Shown here piece by piece: positions 3,673-13,857 of a DNA stretch of 53,182 nt; position 1 is the first letter of the stretch, and each line of letters opens with the position of its first letter. The DNA lies in assembly GCA_905612515.1 (NCBI GenBank), contig CAJQSI010000062.1, positions 1-53,182 of the forward strand, written 5' to 3'. This DNA is from an uncultured Opitutales bacterium. Lineage in GTDB: Bacteria > Verrucomicrobiota > Verrucomicrobiia > Opitutales > Seribacteraceae. Under the pieces are notes generated by a model that had not been told where the DNA came from, made no database searches, and saw nothing but the letters and a program-made list of their open reading frames with translations. The translations under genes and the position numbers were made by a program.

Positions 3673-4965
3673 CTAGACGTCGATCTTTATGCCTTTTCGC
3701 AGGTAGGTGGGAACATCGAGGTCTTCGCCCTCGTACAGGTTCCGCTTTCCTTGGTCGCCGAAGATTCCGCGTTGGTTCTCGGTCTGCATGAAGTCGAAGA
3801 ATTCCTGATCATCGGGAGTCTTGGGATCGGCTTTTTGCTTCTTGGCCTTTTTCTTGGCTGCGGCAGTTTCGCGCTTGAGCTTGGATGCATGGGCGCGGGA
3901 AACGGGCTTGGTCTTCTTGGCCTTGGGAGAAGTGGTGAGGACGGGATCGGCGGCGGGGGCGACGTCGGCGGTAGGTATGCCCGCCTCGAGGTCGGTGGCT
4001 CCGAGCACGCAGATTTCCACGCGATCTCCCATGTTCTCGTCGACGTGGGCGCCGAACACGACGTGTTCTCCCGCCCTGAATTCCTCGCGTATGCTACCGG
4101 CCACTTGCTGAAGGGCGGTCATGTTCATGTCGGGACCGCCGTTGACGGTTATCAGGAGCACATCTGCGGCGCGTGAAACGTCAGGCAAATGCAGCATGGG
4201 GCAAAGCAAGAGATCCCGCAGGGCGTGCCTGATGGCGTCCACGCCCTGCCCTTCCCCATAGCCGAAGAGGGTGCGACCGGATCGGAGGGTGAAGGCCTTG
4301 CGAAGGTGAGCGAAGTCGACATCGATCATGCCCTTGCGAAAGACGAGCGAGCAAATGGCGGATATGCCGCGACTTACGTTCATACCCGCCTGGGCGAAAC
4401 ATTCGAGGGCAGTGGCGTCTGCCCCACCGATCTGAATGAGGGAGTCGTTGGGAAGAGGAATTACGGCATTGGCGAACTTCCGAAGCTCGGCCAAGGCGTC
4501 GTCCGCCATTTGGTGACGCTGCTTTTCCCAGCTAAAGGGCAAAGGAGTGAAGGCGAACACGAGGGCACCGGATTCACGGGCGAGCTTGGCGATGGCGGGA
4601 GCGGCGCCGCCGCCGGTTCCGCCTCCAAGACCGGCAAGAAGAAATACCAGATCCACGCCGTCGAGGTTCTTGCGAATGAGATCGCGGTCCTCGTCCACGG
4701 CCTTTCGGCCGAGGGAAACTTCACCGCCCGTGCCCATGCCGCGAGTAAGACGTCGGCCAATGGGAAGCTTTTCGGAGGCAATGGAATCGGAAAGGACATC
4801 GGCATCGACGTCGATCGCGATAGTGCGTACAGCGTCAAACCCATCGAGGCAAAGGCCATCCACCAAGCTAACCCCCGCTCCACCGATACCGAATACCTTG
4901 GCTCGCACGGAGGAGCTGGAATCGGATTGAAAAGAACCGGATGAGAACATGGTTTGTTGTGACAT
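3673..4965 (-). CDS. ftsZ: Cell division protein FtsZ, divergent (430 aa)
   Basis: Tubulin-like GTPase that forms the cytoplasmic Z ring. The T3 loop is well conserved (GRRLTRGMGTGGE, residues 70-82). The tubulin signature reads GGGTGGG at 114-120 instead of the usual GGGTGTG, and the first glycine loop is GIGGAGVSL (26-34) rather than GGGGN. The T7 loop, which completes the GTPase site of the neighbouring subunit, reads MIDVDFAHLR (213-222) where E. coli has MNVDFADVR. The usual Asn is Asp215, the first Asp is kept (217), and the second catalytic Asp is His220. A basic and charged linker follows (about 330-410), then a recognisable C-terminal peptide LDVPTYLRKGIKIDV that should bind FtsA. 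It is the last gene of the dcw cluster, 80 bases after ftsA. Identity is sure; normal GTPase kinetics are doubtful. Confidence 0.95.
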   Translation of the reverse strand: MSQQTMFSSGSFQSDSSSSVRAKVFGIGGAGVSLVDGLCLDGFDAVRTIAIDVDADVLSDSIASEKLPIGRRLTRGMGTGGEVSLGRKAVDEDRDLIRKNLDGVDLVFLLAGLGGGTGGGAAPAIAKLARESGALVFAFTPLPFSWEKQRHQMADDALAELRKFANAVIPLPNDSLIQIGGADATALECFAQAGMNVSRGISAICSLVFRKGMIDVDFAHLRKAFTLRSGRTLFGYGEGQGVDAIRHALRDLLLCPMLHLPDVSRAADVLLITVNGGPDMNMTALQQVAGSIREEFRAGEHVVFGAHVDENMGDRVEICVLGATDLEAGIPTADVAPAADPVLTTSPKAKKTKPVSRAHASKLKRETAAAKKKAKKQKADPKTPDDQEFFDFMQTENQRGIFGDQGKRNLYEGEDLDVPTYLRKGIKIDV

Positions 4966-5045: not shown

Positions 5046-6251
5046 TCAATTCATTCCGACGAGGTGAACGAGTTTTTTGAACAAGCCTTCCGAACCGTTA
5101 CTTTCGGCAGGGACTGCGCTGTCCTTTAAACCGTAGTGAAGGAGACCCAACACCGTGGCATTTCCGGGATGGGCGAGATCTCCATCGATTCCGGACGGGA
5201 ACGAGGCTTTTTCGGTGCGAAGCCCCAAGACGTTTTCCGCTACGCGATCAATTCCCGGGAGCAGGGACCCGCCACCGGTAAGCAATACGCCCGAGGAGAC
5301 CATCTCTGGATCCAGCAAGGAGCCGATTTCCTTGGCGATGATTTCGAAAAGCTCGACCACCCTCGCATTGATGACTTGGCAAATGGATTTCCGTGAGACG
5401 GTGCGATCGCCGATCGTCTTGTTGCCTATGAGCCACACGTCCTCTTTGGCATCGGACTCATCGACCATGGCCTTGCCGTGCTTTATCTTGATAATTTCGG
5501 CATAAGGCTCGAGAATGCGAAGCCCCATGCTGAGGTCGCCACTTACGTGATCTCCTCCCACGCACACTACGCCGGTAGCCGCAACGTGACCGTGCCGATA
5601 CAGGACGTAATCGGTGACTCCGGCCCCGATGTCTACGACGAGTACGCCCGACTGCTGAAGATCGGCCCCCGCCACGATGGCCCCGGAGGCAATGGACGAA
5701 ACAAAAAGATCAGAAATGGGGAGGCGTCCGTAACCGTCAATGATGTCAACGGTTTCCTGGATGGCATTGTTGTCGCCTTCGATGGCCCAGTATCCGATCT
5801 CGATGGACGAACCGCACATGCCTACGGGATCTTCGACGATGCGATCGTCGAGCACAATGGGAGAGCGCACGTGGTGGACGAAACACCGACCTTCCTCGGG
5901 TTCCTTGCGTTTGGCCTCCTCCGATGCACGCTCGATATCGGAAAACTCCACACGATTGTCGGAAGCGGCGGTTGAAGAACTGCCACGAAGTTGAGCCCCC
6001 CTCAGGTGCGACCCGGTCTGGGCAAGGTAAACCTCGTCGATTTTTGCTCCCGCGGCCTTCTCTGCTTCCTCGAGAGCGGCATGGACGGCAGAGGCAGTCT
6101 TGCGGTAATCGACGATTTCACCTTTACGCACGCCCTTGTTCCTAACGCTAGCAGCGGAAACGACGTTGAGATCGCCCGCAGGAGAAAGTACGCCAACCAT
6201 CGCTTTGGCCTTATGGGTTCCAATTTCTACGGCTCCGAGAATTTTGCTCAT
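5046..6251 (-). CDS. ftsA: Cell division protein FtsA (401 aa)
   Basis: Actin-like ATPase that tethers FtsZ filaments to the membrane. The phosphate-1 motif is at the N-terminus (ILGAVEIGTHKAKAMVG, 4-20). The SHS2/1C subdomain lies roughly at 80-170. Phosphate-2 is VVDIGAGVTDYVL (205-217) and the adenosine motif is LLTGGGSLLPG (323-333). The C-terminal GLFKKLVHLVGMN (389-401) is a classic amphipathic membrane-targeting helix. Length is normal for the family. It sits between ftsQ and ftsZ, the standard order. No Shine-Dalgarno is visible before the ATG (the upstream reads AAATTCGCCC). Confidence 0.95.
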   Translation of the reverse strand: MSKILGAVEIGTHKAKAMVGVLSPAGDLNVVSAASVRNKGVRKGEIVDYRKTASAVHAALEEAEKAAGAKIDEVYLAQTGSHLRGAQLRGSSSTAASDNRVEFSDIERASEEAKRKEPEEGRCFVHHVRSPIVLDDRIVEDPVGMCGSSIEIGYWAIEGDNNAIQETVDIIDGYGRLPISDLFVSSIASGAIVAGADLQQSGVLVVDIGAGVTDYVLYRHGHVAATGVVCVGGDHVSGDLSMGLRILEPYAEIIKIKHGKAMVDESDAKEDVWLIGNKTIGDRTVSRKSICQVINARVVELFEIIAKEIGSLLDPEMVSSGVLLTGGGSLLPGIDRVAENVLGLRTEKASFPSGIDGDLAHPGNATVLGLLHYGLKDSAVPAESNGSEGLFKKLVHLVGMN

Positions 6252-6308: not shown

Positions 6309-7232
6309 TCATAAACGAGCGAAGACCGAGCGACCGTGTGAGAGGTCGATTGAATTGATGCTTTTGTTATTTTTAAAACCGGGTTCCAGAAGAAGGTATT
6401 TGAGACGACGAAGCTGGGCTCGATAATTACGAGGCGCGAAACGCATCTCCTTCACTTCCTTTGATTCAATCAGAACATGGGCACCAGGATCCGATTCATC
6501 GGCATCGGGTCGAAGAAAAGATACGACCTTCCATTCTCGATATAGTTCGGGAAAGTCGTTCCGGGCAATTTCGAGAAGCGGCGAAACCTTCTCTAAAACA
6601 AGAATTCTTTGGTAACCGTTCCTTTCGTCTTTCTTCAACAAGCCGGGATCGGGATTGAGATTGAGATAAGGCAAGGCGCGCAAAGTAGCATTGCGGAAGT
6701 CTTTGCCTTTGTAAATTACGCCCGCTCCCGAAACGAGCCACATTTCGGGAATGCCTTTCTTGGGGCGAATGAAAAGACGATAGAGAGGCTTGTGTTCAGA
6801 GATTTCAACTTGAAGAGTGGAAGGGAATCGACGTCGCACTCGAGCGAAGGCGATTTGCGGTTCCCTTTCCAATTTGCTCCGAAGATCCTTCAGTTCCAAG
6901 TCCATGAGAGTGGCATTTTCGGGGATTTGGAGCGTCCTCTTGATGAAGTTCCGGCTCAACACCCCATCAGTCGCGTATTTAAGAGAGTCGACAGGAAGAG
7001 CCGGACCCGTGAGGTCGACAGGACCCGGATTATTCTGAAAGTGTTCGCAACCGAGCCAAATTCCATATCCGGAACCACCTAGGAGAGCGATGAGCAAAAG
7101 AACTTTTCCGACACCAAGAAGAGAACGTCGCCAAGCAACTGAAGACATCGGGCGCCGACGTTTAACGGAAACAAGGTTACGCCAACTTCTATCGGGATTG
7201 GACTTGGGGTTCTTTTTCCGTGTAATTGCCAT
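6309..7232 (-). CDS. ftsQ: FtsQ/DivIB-like division protein with POTRA domain (307 aa)
   Basis: Bitopic inner-membrane protein of the divisome that links the cytoplasmic ring to FtsI/FtsW. The sequence shows a basic cytoplasmic tail (1-38), one membrane segment (about 41-61, VGKVLLLIALLGGSGYGIWLG) and a POTRA-like domain (about 82-150: a helix, then FARVRRRFPSTLQVEISEHKPL, typical of FtsQ). A poorly conserved beta domain runs to the end. Location between ddl and ftsA supports the call. The gap to ddl is only 28 bases, consistent with one transcript. Confidence 0.85.
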   Translation of the reverse strand: MAITRKKNPKSNPDRSWRNLVSVKRRRPMSSVAWRRSLLGVGKVLLLIALLGGSGYGIWLGCEHFQNNPGPVDLTGPALPVDSLKYATDGVLSRNFIKRTLQIPENATLMDLELKDLRSKLEREPQIAFARVRRRFPSTLQVEISEHKPLYRLFIRPKKGIPEMWLVSGAGVIYKGKDFRNATLRALPYLNLNPDPGLLKKDERNGYQRILVLEKVSPLLEIARNDFPELYREWKVVSFLRPDADESDPGAHVLIESKEVKEMRFAPRNYRAQLRRLKYLLLEPGFKNNKSINSIDLSHGRSVFARL

Positions 7233-7260: not shown

Positions 7261-8196
7261 TCAGGAAGCCTTGCGTTGGGTGAAGCGATCGATTGCCGGC
7301 TCTATCAACTCCTGGGCCAAGTGGCCGAAATCGTAACCTGCGCAAGATGCGCTTTTGGGAAGCAAGCTGGTTTCGGTGAGCCCCGGAAGGGTGTTCACCT
7401 CAAGAAAATGTGAATGCCCGTCTTCACAGACGATGAAATCCACCCGAGCGAAATCACGGCACCCGCAAACGTCGAAGGCCGTGCGAGCAGCGTCTTTGAC
7501 CTCTTCCTCCACCTCACAATGCAAAACGGCGGGATAGCGGTATTCGGTCTGTCCCGACTGGTACTTTCGCTCGTAGTCGTAGACACCACCGATCGGAATG
7601 ACTTCCACCACTCCGAGAGGCTTGCCCCGCAACACGCCAACGGTCAACTCGCGACCACGGATTCGTTTTTCAATCAACCAGTTCCCCTTGGGCAATTCGG
7701 GAAGCAAGGCTTCCAATTCTTGTTCACTTTTAACGACTCTCAACCGAACACTGCTTCCTTGGTCGTTAGGCTTGACGATCAAATCGTTTCCGAGAGTAGC
7801 AACCAAATCACTTGCGGAAACCTCGCTCAGATCACGGAAGAATCTTCCGGGAGCAACTCGAACGCCGGCTTCCCATACCCGATTTTTCGCCAGGTGCTTT
7901 TCCATGCACAGCTTGCTCGAGGTGGAACAGCTTCCGGCGTACTCGACTCCGCGCTCATCCAAGAGTCTCTGCAAGGTGCCGTCTTCACCAAAAGTTCCGT
8001 GAATGGCGGGAAACACGATCGTATCCGAGCCGTCCAAGTCGGGCGGAAGAGCAGTTTGCTCCAAGTCCACGAGGGTGACGCCAAAGCGGTCCCGCAGGGC
8101 GGATGAAATCGCTTGTCCTGTCTCAAGTGAGACCTCTCGTTCTTCCCCCACTCCACCTGAGAGCACCGTAATCGATGGTAAATTATTTTCTGTCAT
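7261..8196 (-). CDS. ddl: D-alanine--D-alanine ligase (311 aa)
   Basis: ATP-grasp ligase that makes the D-Ala-D-Ala dipeptide that MurF attaches to the peptidoglycan precursor. Visible marks are the N-terminal glycine-rich strand (VLSGGVGEEREVSLETG), the ATP-grasp core (KPNDQGSSVRL, then EKRIRGRELTVGVL), the metal-binding end (DFIVCEDGHSHFLEVNTLPGLT) and SLLPKSA. These match the Ddl family in order and spacing. Length is normal. It lies between murC-murB and ftsQ, a common position for ddl in dcw clusters. Confidence 0.95.
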   Translation of the reverse strand: MTENNLPSITVLSGGVGEEREVSLETGQAISSALRDRFGVTLVDLEQTALPPDLDGSDTIVFPAIHGTFGEDGTLQRLLDERGVEYAGSCSTSSKLCMEKHLAKNRVWEAGVRVAPGRFFRDLSEVSASDLVATLGNDLIVKPNDQGSSVRLRVVKSEQELEALLPELPKGNWLIEKRIRGRELTVGVLRGKPLGVVEVIPIGGVYDYERKYQSGQTEYRYPAVLHCEVEEEVKDAARTAFDVCGCRDFARVDFIVCEDGHSHFLEVNTLPGLTETSLLPKSASCAGYDFGHLAQELIEPAIDRFTQRKAS

Positions 8197-8253: not shown

Positions 8254-10455
8254 TCAATTCAATGCTTCCTCCCAGCTTTTCCCCAGAAGGGTGACTTCAG
8301 GTTGCAGTTCCACACCAGTGGAATCCTTAACCTTTCCGCGCACCCGCCGGATCAGGCGAATAACCTCATCCGCGGTAGCACCACCTTGATTGACGATAAA
8401 ATTCGCGTGAACGTTTGAAATCGAGGCAGCTCCGAGGGACTCTCCCTTGAGACCGTGATGGTCGATGAGCCGTCCAGCGGAATCGTCGGTCGGGTTCCGA
8501 AAGATGCATCCGGCGCTGGATTCGCGAGGTTGCGATACCCAACGTTTCTTGGAAAATTCGTCTATTCGTTGACGAACCTCGGTCTTGGTCGAAAAACCGG
8601 TGGCCCGAAGACGAGCCCGCAACACGATGCCCTCCTTGGCCTCTGCGCAAATACGATACCCGACGGTTAGGTTTTCGCCTGCAATCTCACGGACACGACC
8701 GTTCGGCATAAGGAAAGTCACGGTCTCGACAAGGTCGCAAGTCTCCCCGCCCATGGCGCCGGCATTCATTCGCAAGGCTCCACCCAAGGTGCCGGGGATA
8801 CCTTCCAGAAACTCAAAGCCTGCCAGCCCGTGTTCACAAGCCAACCGGCAAATTTCTTTCAACTTGGTTCCGGCCTCGACAACAAAAGTATCGTCGCCGA
8901 CTAGGCGAACTTCTCTCCAAGCAGGCCCTACGAGACGAAGAGCCAGACCGGCAAAACCATCGTCGGGCACGATCAAGTTGGAACCACGTCCCATTACGAA
9001 AAAAGGGAAATCGAAGAGGGAACAAGCATCCACCAATTCGCGCAAATCCTCCGAACAGGAAGGTTCCGCATATGCGGTGGCGGAACCACCTACCCGCAAA
9101 GTAGTCTTGTCGGCCAACGGTTCGTCCATGCGAATGATACAGTCCTTCGACAAGCGCGTTTGAAGATAATCGGACCATGCGCGCCAAGCATCGCCGCTTG
9201 ACAGTTGCCAGGAGGCAAAGGCGTGAGCATGTCGATCCAGATCACCCGCACCCAGAAACAAAACTTGATCACCTTCGGGAGGTGCTGTTCCGATGGCATC
9301 CCGCAAGTCTGAAAAATGCGAGAAGACCCGCGTCGCTTTGCGAAGACGAGGGGGCAAGTAGCCCATCATTTTCTCCACCGATCCATCGACGTCCGGAGAC
9401 TCGTAAGCACCATAGGTAGGCAGAAGAAACAAATCGTCCGCCGCGGACAATTCCTCGGCGAACTCAGCGATCAAGTCACGTGTTCGTGAATAGCGATGAG
9501 GCTGAAAGACGACCTTCAGCCGACGCTCGGGAAAGTGATTTTCGGCTTCCGCCAATACGGCGCGAATTTCCGTGGGATGGTGGGCGTAGTCCTCCAATAC
9601 AAGCCGGTCGGGCGATTCGGCAAGAACGACTTGTCGACGGGCGAGGCCCGGAAAATCAGCCAACTCCTCCGAGTCAGGATTTAGGCCGAGATAACGACAT
9701 GCAGCAAAAGCAGCGGCCGCATTACGTGAATTGTAGGCTCCGGGTTCCAGAGAATTCTCAAAAGTGATCGTTGGACAGGTTGCCGAGGATTGAGCCAACT
9801 TCACCAGCTCATCACCCTCAGGAATAATTACGGCGCTCTCGGTACGAGAAAAAAGTCCGCCGAGCGTTTCGCTAAACCCCTGTTGCGAAGAATATTGAGC
9901 TGTGTGATCCCAATCGCAGTTTAAGCAGAGAGTGACGGTTGGGCTAAATCCATCGATCGTCCCGTCGCTCTCGTCCACCTCGATTACAACCCAAGGCGAA
10001 TTCGAATACGCTCCGGGAGGGATCTCCGGATCACGAAACAATCCTCCGACGAGGTATCCGCATGGAAAATCGGCTTTACGCAAAAGCCACGCAAGCATCG
10101 CCGCAGTGGTGGTCTTTCCGTGACTTCCGACCACGGCCAAAACTTTGCATTCGGCAGTCAGCTTAGCCAGAAAATCTCCTCTCCTCAAAACAGGTACGCC
10201 TTGCTCCTTCCATTGATCCAAGACAGGCAGGTTCTCGGCAATGGCGGAAGACCTAACCACGACGTCGGGACGAAAACTAGGAACGGGTTCCGAAAGAATA
10301 CGCACTCCAGATTGTTCAAGCAAACTGCGGACAGGTTCCCGAAACGAGTCGTCAAAAGCTTCCACATCGACACCTGCTCCTTGCAAGTACATGGCCAATG
10401 GAGCCATACCCATGCCACCGGCCCCTAGAAGAAAGCATTTGCGAGGAACCTTCAT
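8254..10455 (-). CDS. murC/murB: MurC-MurB fusion: UDP-MurNAc--L-Ala ligase / UDP-MurNAc dehydrogenase (733 aa)
   Basis: One protein with two enzymes of UDP-MurNAc-pentapeptide synthesis. Residues 1-425 are MurC: Rossmann N-terminus (LLGAGGMGMAPLA), ATP loop VVGSHGKTTT (108-117), VIEVDESDG (157-165), YAHHPTEI (290-297) and FQPHRYSRT (317-325). Residues about 433-733 are MurB: FAD-binding VMGRGSNLIVPD (487-498), EGIPGTLGGALRMNAGAMGGE (551-571) and the C-terminal catalytic Glu720 in LQPEV. The MurB proton-donor position, usually Ser in GSxF, is Cys650 (SAGCIFRNP). There is no frameshift or stop at the junction, so the fusion is real. It overlaps the end of murG by 4 bases. From general knowledge, fused murC-murB genes occur in several Verrucomicrobiota. 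Confidence 0.95.
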   Translation of the reverse strand: MKVPRKCFLLGAGGMGMAPLAMYLQGAGVDVEAFDDSFREPVRSLLEQSGVRILSEPVPSFRPDVVVRSSAIAENLPVLDQWKEQGVPVLRRGDFLAKLTAECKVLAVVGSHGKTTTAAMLAWLLRKADFPCGYLVGGLFRDPEIPPGAYSNSPWVVIEVDESDGTIDGFSPTVTLCLNCDWDHTAQYSSQQGFSETLGGLFSRTESAVIIPEGDELVKLAQSSATCPTITFENSLEPGAYNSRNAAAAFAACRYLGLNPDSEELADFPGLARRQVVLAESPDRLVLEDYAHHPTEIRAVLAEAENHFPERRLKVVFQPHRYSRTRDLIAEFAEELSAADDLFLLPTYGAYESPDVDGSVEKMMGYLPPRLRKATRVFSHFSDLRDAIGTAPPEGDQVLFLGAGDLDRHAHAFASWQLSSGDAWRAWSDYLQTRLSKDCIIRMDEPLADKTTLRVGGSATAYAEPSCSEDLRELVDACSLFDFPFFVMGRGSNLIVPDDGFAGLALRLVGPAWREVRLVGDDTFVVEAGTKLKEICRLACEHGLAGFEFLEGIPGTLGGALRMNAGAMGGETCDLVETVTFLMPNGRVREIAGENLTVGYRICAEAKEGIVLRARLRATGFSTKTEVRQRIDEFSKKRWVSQPRESSAGCIFRNPTDDSAGRLIDHHGLKGESLGAASISNVHANFIVNQGGATADEVIRLIRRVRGKVKDSTGVELQPEVTLLGKSWEEALN

Positions 10456-11588
10456 CCGGCAAAAGGCAGGGCGCCTGCAACGACGTCGGGATTACCGCTT
10501 TCTTTTAGCACATTGGTGACATCGAAAACGATTTCCGACACCACGTCTCCGGGGTCGGTCGCCACCAAGTTCCGACGCAAAACTGCTCGAAACTCCTCGT
10601 TGAACATTACTTCGCGGGCTTCCTCAAAAAGCAATTCCCCGATCTGATCCTGCGGACATACGATGGCAGCGCCCTTCTGCTCGATAAAGGAGGCGTTAAG
10701 GGCTTGGTGATCGTCCGCCGCAAAGGGGTAAGGAACCAAAATCGAAGGGACGCGACATCGGACAATTTCGGAAATAGAACCTGCGCCGGCTCGAGAAATC
10801 ACCAAGTCAGCGGCGGAAAGAACGGTGCTCATCTCATCGCTGAAAGGCACGAACCTCATTGGCACGGAAGAACCGTCGGGATCCGTCATCTCAACAACGC
10901 CCGAACTTTCATTACCCATTCCCGTAAGGCAATAAACACTGATCCCATTCGAGGCGAATGCCTCCAAATGCTCTTTCACCCATTTGTTGAGAGAGGCTGC
11001 GCCTTGGCTTCCGCCCAATACCACGAGCAGTCGTTCGGTGGAACCCACGCCCAAACTCCTGCGGGCTCGTTCCCGTGGGATTCGACGAAATTCTCTGCGG
11101 AGCGGATAGCCTAGGTTACGAACCACTTTGGAAGAAACGCCATCCATCCTGATTCCTTCCGGCAGGTATAGCCTACTCGCCTTTTTGCGAAGCAAACGCA
11201 CAGCACGTCCGACAGCTCGATTGGCTTCATGCAGAAACACCGGTATCCCGCGACTACGCGCTGCCAAAACCGGCCCGACTGAGGTAAATCCGCCAAAACC
11301 AAACAAAGCGTCCGCCCCAATGTTGCGATAGAATCGGAGCGAATGAAAATAAGAGGACACCAAGCCCTTGGCGAACCGGCCTAATCCGATCGGGGTTTTA
11401 AGAAAAGGAGCACCGGGGACGCGTTCGAAACTAAGTTCGGGATAATTCTCCGCCAGACGCGAATCAACCATTTTGTTGCTGATAAACATCCAACAGGGGT
11501 AGCCTTTTTCTTCCAAACTCTGTGCAAGGGCGATCCCGGGAGTCAGATGACCTCCGGTTCCTCCGCATGCTATTACGACGTTTCTCAT
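10452..11588 (-). CDS. murG: MurG, lipid II-forming GlcNAc transferase (378 aa)
   Basis: Transfers GlcNAc from UDP-GlcNAc to lipid I on the inner face of the membrane, giving lipid II. The glycine-rich N-terminal loop is IACGGTGGHLTPGIALA (6-22). Later come FLHEANRAVGRA, the second glycine loop VLGGSQGAASLN, and the UDP-GlcNAc site SRAGAGSISEI. This is a GT-B (GT28) enzyme of normal length. Its stop overlaps the murC-murB start by 4 bases, and it follows ftsW by 25 bases. Confidence 0.96.
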   Translation of the reverse strand: MRNVVIACGGTGGHLTPGIALAQSLEEKGYPCWMFISNKMVDSRLAENYPELSFERVPGAPFLKTPIGLGRFAKGLVSSYFHSLRFYRNIGADALFGFGGFTSVGPVLAARSRGIPVFLHEANRAVGRAVRLLRKKASRLYLPEGIRMDGVSSKVVRNLGYPLRREFRRIPRERARRSLGVGSTERLLVVLGGSQGAASLNKWVKEHLEAFASNGISVYCLTGMGNESSGVVEMTDPDGSSVPMRFVPFSDEMSTVLSAADLVISRAGAGSISEIVRCRVPSILVPYPFAADDHQALNASFIEQKGAAIVCPQDQIGELLFEEAREVMFNEEFRAVLRRNLVATDPGDVVSEIVFDVTNVLKESGNPDVVAGALPFAG

Positions 11589-11613: not shown

Positions 11614-12762
11614 CTACAATTCTCTCGACCGCGAGAGGACGGGACCTCCCCAGCTTCGGAATACGTTTAGAATCAAACCGATCAGCACGAAAGTAACCAT
11701 CAAGTTGGAGCCTCCATAGCTGATGAAGGGTAACGACATGCCTTTGGTAGGCATGGAACCGGTCACAACGCCCACGTTTATGACCGCCTGTAGAGCGATT
11801 GCTAAAATAGCTCCTGAACCAATAAGAAAAAGGTATAGATTTGGAGCCTCCCTCAATCGCCAGGCAACCAGAACGAACAATGCTAGGAAGCATGCGACGA
11901 TTCCGAGCGAGAAAATCAAACCGAGTTCCTCGCCGATTACGGAAAAGATAAAGTCGGTATGAGCCTCGGGCAGGAAATGCATCTGCTGTCTTCCCTTGCC
12001 GAGCCCTACTCCATCGATCCCTCCGACACCGAAAGCGAGCATACCTTGCCAAAGTTGGTAGGCGCTGTCGTTGGCATTGGCCTCTACGTCGAGAAATGAA
12101 GTGACTCTTCGAATTCGCACGGGGTCTAGATAAACCAGCACAGCGAAGCCGGATACGGCCAAACCAGCAAAAGGAAGCAACCATCGTAAGCTGACCCCGG
12201 CCAGAAACATCATGGTTGCGCCGACAGCCCCGCACAGAAAGGTCGTACCGAAATCGGGTTGCAACATAATCAAACCGAGAACGAGTCCGAGAACTAGGGA
12301 GGGGCAAACAAAACCTCGCCAGAGGGACTTGATCTCCCTTTGATTCGCGGAAAGGTAAACGGCAAGAATCAAAACAAGTCCGATTTTGGCGAACTCCGAA
12401 GGTTGCAATCGCAAAGGGCCCAGACCAAGCCAGCGCTGAGCTCCATTCACCTTGACCCCGAACCCCGGAACCAAAACCAGTATCAATGCCAGAGCACAGA
12501 TGCCATAGAGCAGCCAAGCCCGTTTGCGTAGCCATTCCAGATTGACGAACGCCGAGATTCCCCCTGCCACAATCGAGAGGCACAACCAAATTGCCTGCTT
12601 GGAGACCAAGGCGTACGGACCGCTCTTCGTTACGGCACCCGCACTGAAGAGCATAACCAGACCCAAAGTCGTAAGGGCCAAAGCTACGGTGATGACGAAA
12701 ATGGGAATGAAGTGACCACCGCTCATCGATGAACGCGTTGCCGTAGCTTGTCCAACGATCAT
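11614..12762 (-). CDS. ftsW: FtsW, SEDS peptidoglycan polymerase (382 aa)
   Basis: Polytopic inner-membrane protein with about ten membrane segments. It polymerises lipid II at the septum together with the class B PBP encoded at 19303-21096. Family marks are NGAQRWLGLGPLRLQPSEFAK, MLQPDFGTT, the loop HTDFIFSVIGEELG, and the C-terminal GMSLPFISYGGSNL. The start at 12762 is the first ATG; a second ATG at 12726 (MSGGHF) is also possible because the first 12 residues are not typical of the family. A longer open frame overlaps the same bases in another register and is a shadow. Confidence 0.95.
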   Translation of the reverse strand: MIVGQATATRSSMSGGHFIPIFVITVALALTTLGLVMLFSAGAVTKSGPYALVSKQAIWLCLSIVAGGISAFVNLEWLRKRAWLLYGICALALILVLVPGFGVKVNGAQRWLGLGPLRLQPSEFAKIGLVLILAVYLSANQREIKSLWRGFVCPSLVLGLVLGLIMLQPDFGTTFLCGAVGATMMFLAGVSLRWLLPFAGLAVSGFAVLVYLDPVRIRRVTSFLDVEANANDSAYQLWQGMLAFGVGGIDGVGLGKGRQQMHFLPEAHTDFIFSVIGEELGLIFSLGIVACFLALFVLVAWRLREAPNLYLFLIGSGAILAIALQAVINVGVVTGSMPTKGMSLPFISYGGSNLMVTFVLIGLILNVFRSWGGPVLSRSREL

Positions 12763-12810: not shown

Positions 12811-13857
12811 TCATTCCTCGGGGGCATCCACCACGGGGGGCTTGTCGTTATTGAAGAAATCTTCAAATGTCTTGGGATCGGGAGTGGCGGGAGGAGGGAT
12901 AGTAGGAGTTGTAACTGGATCCACGGGAGATGGCGCCAAAGGAATAGGAGGAGTTGCCCCAGATACAGACAGGACTTGACCGACTCGAATGCTGTTGGCA
13001 TTCGTCATTCCGTTCAGTTCCATTAGTTTTGCCACTGTCGTGCCGTAGGTGACGGCGATGCGGGATAGGTTGTCACCGGAACGCACCGTGTGAGTATTAC
13101 CTCCCAGCGAAGGTTCCGGCGTTGGAACAGATGTAGGTGTGCTTGGAATTGATCCACCACTGCCAGGTAAAACGAGAGTTTGGCCGATCTGGAGAGTGTC
13201 GCCGGATAGTCCGTTCGCGGTCCGCAACGCCTGTATGGATACACCATGGGAAGAAGCGATTCGAGTGAGATTATCTCCTTTCTTAATGACATAGGAAGTA
13301 GCTCCCGGAGAAACAACCGTAGGATCCGGCCCGGATGGCGCCCCAGTTCCGCCAGTGGCAGTGGTTCCGGCCCCCGGCACTAGAACTTCCTGCCCTACAC
13401 TTAATGAGGCATTTTTGTTCAATCCCGGATTTGCCCCGAGGAGAGCATTCAAGGAGACGTTATTCTTGCGGGCAATTCCCCAGAGCGTGTCTCCTCTCGC
13501 AATTTTGTAAACGCTTACTCCCTCGGGTCGCAGGCCAACTCCAGTAGCATCCCCCGTCCCGGAATTAACGATTCCTTCCGTCCCTCCGGGAACGATCAAT
13601 TCGCCCGGATTGGGTCGAGTGGGAGAAGACCGTCCCCCTGGCGCAGTTCCTGATGCAGACTCACTTGTCGGATCCTCAGTCTCGGTACCTGCGTTAAAGG
13701 CAGGATCCACTCCGGTCTCGGGAGGAGAAGTTTCTGTAGTTCCGTTTTGGTCTCCCTTGCCCTTCTTGAGGGTATTGCAACTGGGTTGGAACATCACGAG
13801 GAGGATTACTCCCACGTGCAATGACAATACAATTCCGAATATTTTAGTTAGTTTCAT
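12811..13857 (-). CDS. Exported protein with three LysM domains, inside the dcw cluster (348 aa)
   Basis: The N-terminus (MKLTKIFGIVLSLHVGVILLVMF) is a membrane anchor or signal. Cys27 sits in QPSC, a poor lipobox, so lipidation is uncertain. A low-complexity Gly/Thr/Pro stretch follows, then three LysM domains: YKIARGDTLWGIARKNNVS, YVIKKGDNLTRIASSHGVS and HTVRSGDNLSRIAVTYGTT, each ending in a VGQ/IGQ strand. Pro/Thr-rich linkers separate them. LysM binds the glycan of peptidoglycan, so the protein should sit on the periplasmic wall. There is no catalytic domain. Its place between murD and ftsW, in the same transcript, suggests a role tied to septal wall synthesis (inference). Confidence 0.9.
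   Translation of the reverse strand: MKLTKIFGIVLSLHVGVILLVMFQPSCNTLKKGKGDQNGTTETSPPETGVDPAFNAGTETEDPTSESASGTAPGGRSSPTRPNPGELIVPGGTEGIVNSGTGDATGVGLRPEGVSVYKIARGDTLWGIARKNNVSLNALLGANPGLNKNASLSVGQEVLVPGAGTTATGGTGAPSGPDPTVVSPGATSYVIKKGDNLTRIASSHGVSIQALRTANGLSGDTLQIGQTLVLPGSGGSIPSTPTSVPTPEPSLGGNTHTVRSGDNLSRIAVTYGTTVAKLMELNGMTNANSIRVGQVLSVSGATPPIPLAPSPVDPVTTPTIPPPATPDPKTFEDFFNNDKPPVVDAPEE

What the first reader, a model, noticed from the sequence alone, without database searches (positions are those of the whole stretch)
3673..4965. FtsZ with altered GTPase residues (T7 loop His220, signature GGGTGGG)
The T7 loop reads MIDVDFAHLR where E. coli has MNVDFADVR. The Asn is Asp and the second catalytic Asp, needed to activate GTP hydrolysis in the neighbour subunit, is His. 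The tubulin signature has one change and the first glycine loop is degenerate. The C-terminal FtsA-binding peptide is intact and the gene is in the normal place, so the protein is surely used. It may hydrolyse GTP slowly or rely on another mechanism. Codons were checked on the raw strand.
Basis: partly seen in the sequence, partly recalled or inferred. Interest (0 to 1): 0.6.

Follow-up and report, generated by a model that had tools for sequence, protein, structure and literature searches.

The report
FtsZ lacking one catalytic aspartate
This bacterium's only detected copy of the cell-division protein FtsZ has lost one of the two acidic residues thought essential for breaking down GTP, and the same loss is fixed across nearly the whole order it belongs to, so either FtsZ needs only one acid or these bacteria divide with an unusually slow FtsZ.

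Summary
In detail: the minus-strand gene 4965-3673 encodes FtsZ (430 aa). Its T7 loop is GMIDVDFAHLR, i.e. N207D and D212H in E. coli numbering. It is the only FtsZ found in the 52%-complete bin and in each congener with a match, lies at the end of a normal dcw cluster, keeps its C-terminal peptide and is under purifying selection (dN/dS 0.05-0.08). His220 is not a quirk of this gene: all four genus members with FtsZ have it. In the family the position is His 17, Tyr 7, Asp 6, all one nucleotide apart. Across the order (109 sequences, 24 families) 99 lack an acid there (Thr/Ser/Ala/His/Tyr), while 104 keep the other acid (D209). The 17 sampled sequences from six other families of the class show the reverse: D209 is lost (mostly Gly), D212 kept. 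Phylum outgroups usually keep both. So the class runs FtsZ on one T7 acid, against the published NxDxx[D/E] consensus. I think it is a working FtsZ that hydrolyses GTP slowly through D209; the rate is unmeasured. New variant of a known kind.

The parts
3673..4965 (-). ftsZ, 430 aa, only FtsZ found in the bin
   Evidence: Pfam Tubulin 6e-33 and FtsZ_C 9.7e-12; TIGR00065 6.6e-66, 223 bits, under its 295 cut-off like most of the phylum; AlphaFold model matches solved FtsZ (TM 0.84-0.93 by target for nearly all of the top 50)
4300..4332 (-). T7 (synergy) loop, residues 212-222 GMIDVDFAHLR: N207D, D209 kept, D212H
4306..4308 (-). His220 codon CAC, position of E. coli D212 / S. aureus D213
4606..4626 (-). 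tubulin signature GGGTGGG (residues 114-120); Gly at this position in 28 of 30 family members, Thr of the motif lost in 12 of 30
4792..4818 (-). T2 loop AIDVDADVL: S. aureus N44 to Asp, D46 kept, Q48 (K+ lock) to Asp
   Evidence: residue roles PMC8936486
4870..4893 (-). first glycine loop FGIGGAGV, ordinary for relatives
3685..3726 (-). C-terminal peptide EDLDVPTYLRKGIK (E. coli LDIPAFLRK), presumed FtsA/partner binding
5046..6251 (-). ftsA
   Evidence: Pfam FtsA 2e-28, SHS2_FTSA
6309..7232 (-). ftsQ
   Evidence: POTRA_1 FtsQ-type 5e-9
7261..8196 (-). ddl
8254..10455 (-). murC-murB fusion
   Evidence: Mur ligase plus MurB domains in one ORF
10452..11588 (-). murG
11614..12762 (-). ftsW

Best explanation
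This is the working division FtsZ of an Opitutia bacterium. Shown: a single ftsZ in its dcw place, with intact fold and tail, under purifying selection, and with one of the two T7 acids (D212) replaced; the replacement is ancient and near-universal in the order. Inferred: filaments form in the usual head-to-tail way; GTP of the lower subunit is hydrolysed by the kept acid D209 (the S. aureus D210 that swings the attacking water) with the kept Arg (R150), but without the second acid that also holds the water, so hydrolysis and subunit turnover are slow compared with E. coli. The residue at 212 is then free to drift among His, Tyr, Thr, Ser and Ala, and Asp can return. The Z ring would turn over slowly and act mainly as a scaffold.
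For: Sequence and loop. Only FtsZ in the own bin and one each in G002-G004. dcw neighbours ftsW-murG-murCB-ddl-ftsQ-ftsA. dN/dS 0.05-0.08 among congeners. Order: 104 of 109 keep an acid at 209, 99 of 109 lack one at 212; the order's FtsZ is one supported clade. His/Tyr/Asp codons differ by one base, at least 4 changes in the family, with Asp nested twice inside His. R142-equivalent kept 30 of 30 in the family. Mechanism: S. aureus D210 swings and with D213 holds the water; D213N blocks assembly (PMC8936486). E. coli D212G: about tenfold lower GTPase, rings form but are static (PMC7320174). Alpha-tubulin E254A at the matching site blocks hydrolysis and makes stable polymer (PMC7018511). ftsZ is essential in Verrucomicrobium spinosum (PMC12283558).
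Against: No rate measured. S. aureus D213N does not assemble at all, so the slow-but-working reading needs compensation elsewhere, which I did not identify. N207D and the Q48 changes (Asp, Lys or Arg) could compensate or could further impair. Asp returning within the family hints that an acid is still useful there.
Confidence: 0.55

Rival explanations
1. Fully compensated enzyme: hydrolysis is near normal because other changes (N207D adding an acid in T7, altered T2 loop, His acting as a base or water holder) rebuild the site around one acid.
For: N207D in 28 of 30 family members and absent elsewhere in the order; the 17 sampled sequences of other class families also carry one acid, the opposite one, so a one-acid site seems viable; at least one of the two acids is kept in 166 of 170 sequences.
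Against: N207D also accompanies D212 when Asp is present (4 sequences), so it is not tied to the loss; Thr/Ser/Ala elsewhere in the order cannot act as a base; the exclusivity of the two losses rests on few independent events and is not significant on the tree.
Confidence: 0.25
2. GTPase-dead scaffold: this FtsZ binds GTP and polymerises but does not hydrolyse it meaningfully; division relies on other drivers of turnover and on wall synthesis.
For: Beta-tubulin keeps N and D of the motif but has Lys at this place and its partner's GTP is not hydrolysed (own knowledge); the T7 state of most of the order (N-D-Thr) resembles that; signature Thr is also lost in 12 of 30 family members; several small genomes of the order seem to have lost FtsZ altogether.
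Against: D209, the swinging acid, is kept in 104 of 109 sequences, which would be needless if hydrolysis had been given up; R142 is kept.
Confidence: 0.15
3. The changes are irrelevant or misleading: a second canonical FtsZ does the work, or the sequence is an artefact.
For: The own bin is only 52% complete; G001, G014 and some other bins gave no FtsZ match.
Against: Three congeners of 69-90% completeness each have a single copy with the same loop; well-assembled relatives in the order, including single-contig genomes, have one FtsZ lacking the acid; strong purifying selection; second copies in G024 and G107 branch outside the order and look like contamination.
Confidence: 0.04

Closest known systems
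Canonical bacterial FtsZ (E. coli, S. aureus)
   Same: Fold, GTP-binding signature region, T7 position, D209, R142, C-terminal peptide, dcw position
   Different: D212 replaced by His, N207 by Asp, Q47 by Asp; NxDxx[D/E] consensus not met
Verrucomicrobium spinosum FtsZ (PMC1845146, PMC12283558)
   Same: Same phylum, divergent FtsZ in a dcw cluster, near-consensus signature (GGGTGSG), murC-murB fusion; essential gene there
   Different: The sampled sequences from other families of this class lose D209 rather than D212; the V. spinosum sequence itself was not fetched here
E. coli FtsZ D212G (ftsZ2) laboratory mutant
   Same: Loss of the same acid
   Different: A single laboratory change in a protein adapted to having it; here it is a natural, fixed, clade-wide state
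Beta-tubulin T7 (Lys254) and alpha-tubulin E254A
   Same: No acid at the matching site; N and D of the motif kept
   Different: Tubulin heterodimer; resemblance in logic only, from own knowledge and PMC7018511
Ca. Thiosymbion oneisti FtsZ, natural low GTPase (PMC8953583)
   Same: A natural FtsZ with low GTPase that appears functional in cells
   Different: Its catalytic residues are conserved; the cause is elsewhere

Membership tests
FtsZ | Tubulin/FtsZ GTPase domain plus FtsZ C-terminal domain | tested here: met
   PF00091 6e-33, PF12327 9.7e-12, both over cut-off
FtsZ | TIGR00065 equivalog score over the curated cut-off (295 bits); a scoring convention rather than a biological trait | tested here: not met
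   223 bits; but only 24 of 289 genomes of the phylum pass, so this reflects divergence of the whole phylum
FtsZ | FtsZ fold | tested here: met
   AlphaFold model, core pLDDT mostly 70-96; best PDB matches are all FtsZ, probability 1.00
FtsZ | dcw location next to ftsA/ftsQ and C-terminal partner-binding peptide | tested here: met
FtsZ | GTP-binding signature GGGTG[T/S]G | tested here: inconclusive
   GGGTGGG, one residue off the consensus; Gly there is the family norm
FtsZ with canonical catalytic T7 loop (NxDxx[D/E]) | N207, D209 and D/E212 all present | tested here: not met
   D-D-H instead of N-D-D; motif as quoted in PMC12583498
FtsZ | GTP-dependent assembly and hydrolysis | not testable with these tools
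   needs purified protein
FtsZ-like second-copy or non-division paralogues | present beside a canonical FtsZ | tested here: not met
   single copy in own bin and congeners

The most novel reading that the evidence does not exclude
A whole class of bacteria divides with one-acid FtsZ: the order of this window dropped D212 and sister families dropped D209, and in the window's order the protein is slow or nearly dead as a GTPase, so treadmilling at E. coli speed is not needed for septation in these bacteria.
Probability: 0.35. Interest if true: 0.78.

Novelty: new variant of a known kind. Interest (0 to 1): 0.52.

Why it matters
Structural work treats both T7 acids as conserved across species and needed for assembly or hydrolysis. 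A natural order-wide FtsZ without one of them, and a sister group without the other, gives ready-made natural experiments for two open questions: which acid does the chemistry, and whether fast GTP turnover and treadmilling are needed for division at all. It may also bear on how related phyla of the same superphylum (Planctomycetota, Chlamydiota) came to divide without FtsZ.

Tried and rejected
Second canonical ftsZ: searched with TIGR00065 and PF00091 in the own genome and with the protein in 110 relatives; none credible. The extra FtsZ of G024 (contig 107) falls beside E. coli and that of G107 (contig 5) falls inside another family's clade, so both read as contamination. Compensation between positions 209 and 212 was tested as independent pairs on the tree: when both differ they go in opposite directions (209 against 212), but there are too few events for significance, so I do not claim it. 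N207D as a compensator for D212H was rejected as a strict pair because it also occurs with Asp at 212. The 'degenerate glycine loop' was rejected. No paper on an Opitutia FtsZ's enzymology or T7 loop was found in ten literature searches (open-access library only; I recall a 2008 study of division genes in these phyla and Vaughan 2004, neither of which I read).

Full report
Observation. The finding sits on the minus strand: an ORF of 430 aa from ATG at 4965 to a stop at 3673. It is FtsZ by Pfam (Tubulin 6e-33; FtsZ_C 9.7e-12), by PDB sequence search (51 solved sequences, all named FtsZ, best 3e-51) and by an AlphaFold model whose best PDB matches are all FtsZ. Its NCBIfam ftsZ score (223 bits) is below the curated cut-off of 295, but so are most FtsZs of the phylum: only 24 of 289 genomes pass. 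The T7 loop reads GMIDVDFAHLR at residues 212-222 against GLMNVDFADVR in E. coli. In E. coli numbering that is N207D, D209 kept and D212H. The codons (GAT, GAC, CAC) were read from the raw strand.

Is it used? It is the only FtsZ found in the bin, with the caveat that the bin is 52% complete. The three other congeners with a match also have one copy each. It ends a dcw cluster in normal order: ftsW, murG, murC-murB fusion, ddl, ftsQ, ftsA, ftsZ, preceded upstream by ORFs that look like rsmH, ftsI, murE, murF, mraY and murD (read from sequence, not searched). The C-terminal peptide DLDVPTYLRKGIK is intact. Between congeners dN/dS is 0.05-0.08. This is a gene under purifying selection, not a relic.

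Is His220 a clade trait? Yes, and more than that. All four genus members with the gene have His. In the family (30 sequences) the position is His in 17, Tyr in 7, Asp in 6; codons CAY, TAY and GAY differ in one base, the fewest changes are 4, and Asp is nested twice inside His-bearing clades on a careful tree. Named records that match these loci are Opitutia/Verrucomicrobia MAGs. Across the order, after setting aside one contaminant, 109 sequences from 24 families give: acid at 209 kept in 104; acid at 212 missing in 99, mostly Thr, Ser, Ala, His or Tyr; both missing in 4. The order's FtsZ forms one clade with SH-aLRT 99 in a quick tree of 173 sequences built without the T7 columns.

The neighbours show the mirror image. 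In 17 sequences from six other families of the class, the acid at 209 is gone in all (mostly Gly, as in NVGLDDL) and the acid at 212 is kept in all (Asp or Glu). Three further families of the class with weak ftsZ matches (f30, f34, f37) were not fetched. Outside the class, 27 of 44 sequences keep both, 9 lack the 212 acid and 8 lack the 209 acid. So the published consensus NxDxx[D/E] (quoted in PMC12583498) fails across this class, usually by exactly one acid. I did not find this stated in the literature reachable here; the 2007 V. spinosum paper notes eight changes at otherwise conserved positions without discussing the T7 loop in the parts I read (PMC1845146). The exclusivity of the two losses is suggestive only: on supported branches there are too few independent events to test.

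Other active-site residues. R142 (S. aureus R143, needed for catalysis) is kept in all 30 family members. D46 is kept. Q48, which locks the T7 potassium ion in S. aureus, is Asp in this genus and Arg or Lys in the rest of the family; N44 is Asp. The Thr of the tubulin signature is lost in 12 of 30 family members, though not in this one. The glycine loop is ordinary. So the whole family has a reworked, not merely damaged, nucleotide interface.

Mechanism. In S. aureus, D210 (E. coli D209) swings to place the attacking water and D213 (D212) holds it and bridges to R143; D210N and D213N both stop assembly (PMC8936486). In E. coli, D212G cuts GTPase about tenfold in one assay and is cited as under 1% in another, and rings become static (PMC7320174). 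I recall that the E. coli ftsZ2 (D212G) strain is viable and was read as showing that stable polymers can support division; I could not fetch that paper. In tubulin the matching glutamate (alpha E254) is the catalytic acid, and E254A gives stable GTP-state polymer (PMC7018511). From these I infer slow hydrolysis through D209. That is inference: I know of no measured rate for any FtsZ of this order.

Verdict. It is a new variant of a known kind with a clear, cheap test.

Noticed in passing
G046, G065, G068, G073, G082, G083 (loci L208-L213): Six small genomes (0.8-1.0 Mb, 90-95% complete) from five families of the same order show no FtsZ with three different probes, and their FtsA matches look like MreB or are absent, while FtsW/RodA and MurG are present. 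In L209 ftsW-murG runs straight into non-dcw genes, and in L208, L211 and L213 the cluster stops after ftsW. Possible loss of FtsZ and FtsA in reduced Verrucomicrobiota, which are usually described as FtsZ-bearing.
   Followed up: partly
window 3673-3810 (minus strand), residues about 385-430: The last 45 residues (QEFFDFM...QRGIFGDQGKRNLYEGEDLDVPTYLRKGIKI) are conserved well beyond the usual short C-terminal peptide in relatives; this may be an extra partner-binding motif.
   Followed up: no
L086, L087, L096, L094 (f22), L097, L099, L100, L092 (f3), L089, L090 (f19): Some families of the order have much more degraded FtsZ nucleotide sites, e.g. GCLGRGFASG in place of the tubulin signature (f22) and GLYAFDLSTL as T7 (f3), yet those checked keep the C-terminal peptide.
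   Followed up: no
window 8254-10455 (minus strand): murC and murB are fused in one 733-aa ORF, as reported for Verrucomicrobium spinosum (PMC12283558).
   Followed up: partly
window 12811-13857 (minus strand): A LysM-repeat-like protein sits between murD and ftsW inside the dcw cluster; a similar protein lies beside ftsW in L208 and L209 of distant small genomes.
   Followed up: no
L093 (G024 contig 107) and L084 (G107 contig 5): Extra FtsZ genes in two bins that branch outside the order, most likely bin contamination.
   Followed up: partly
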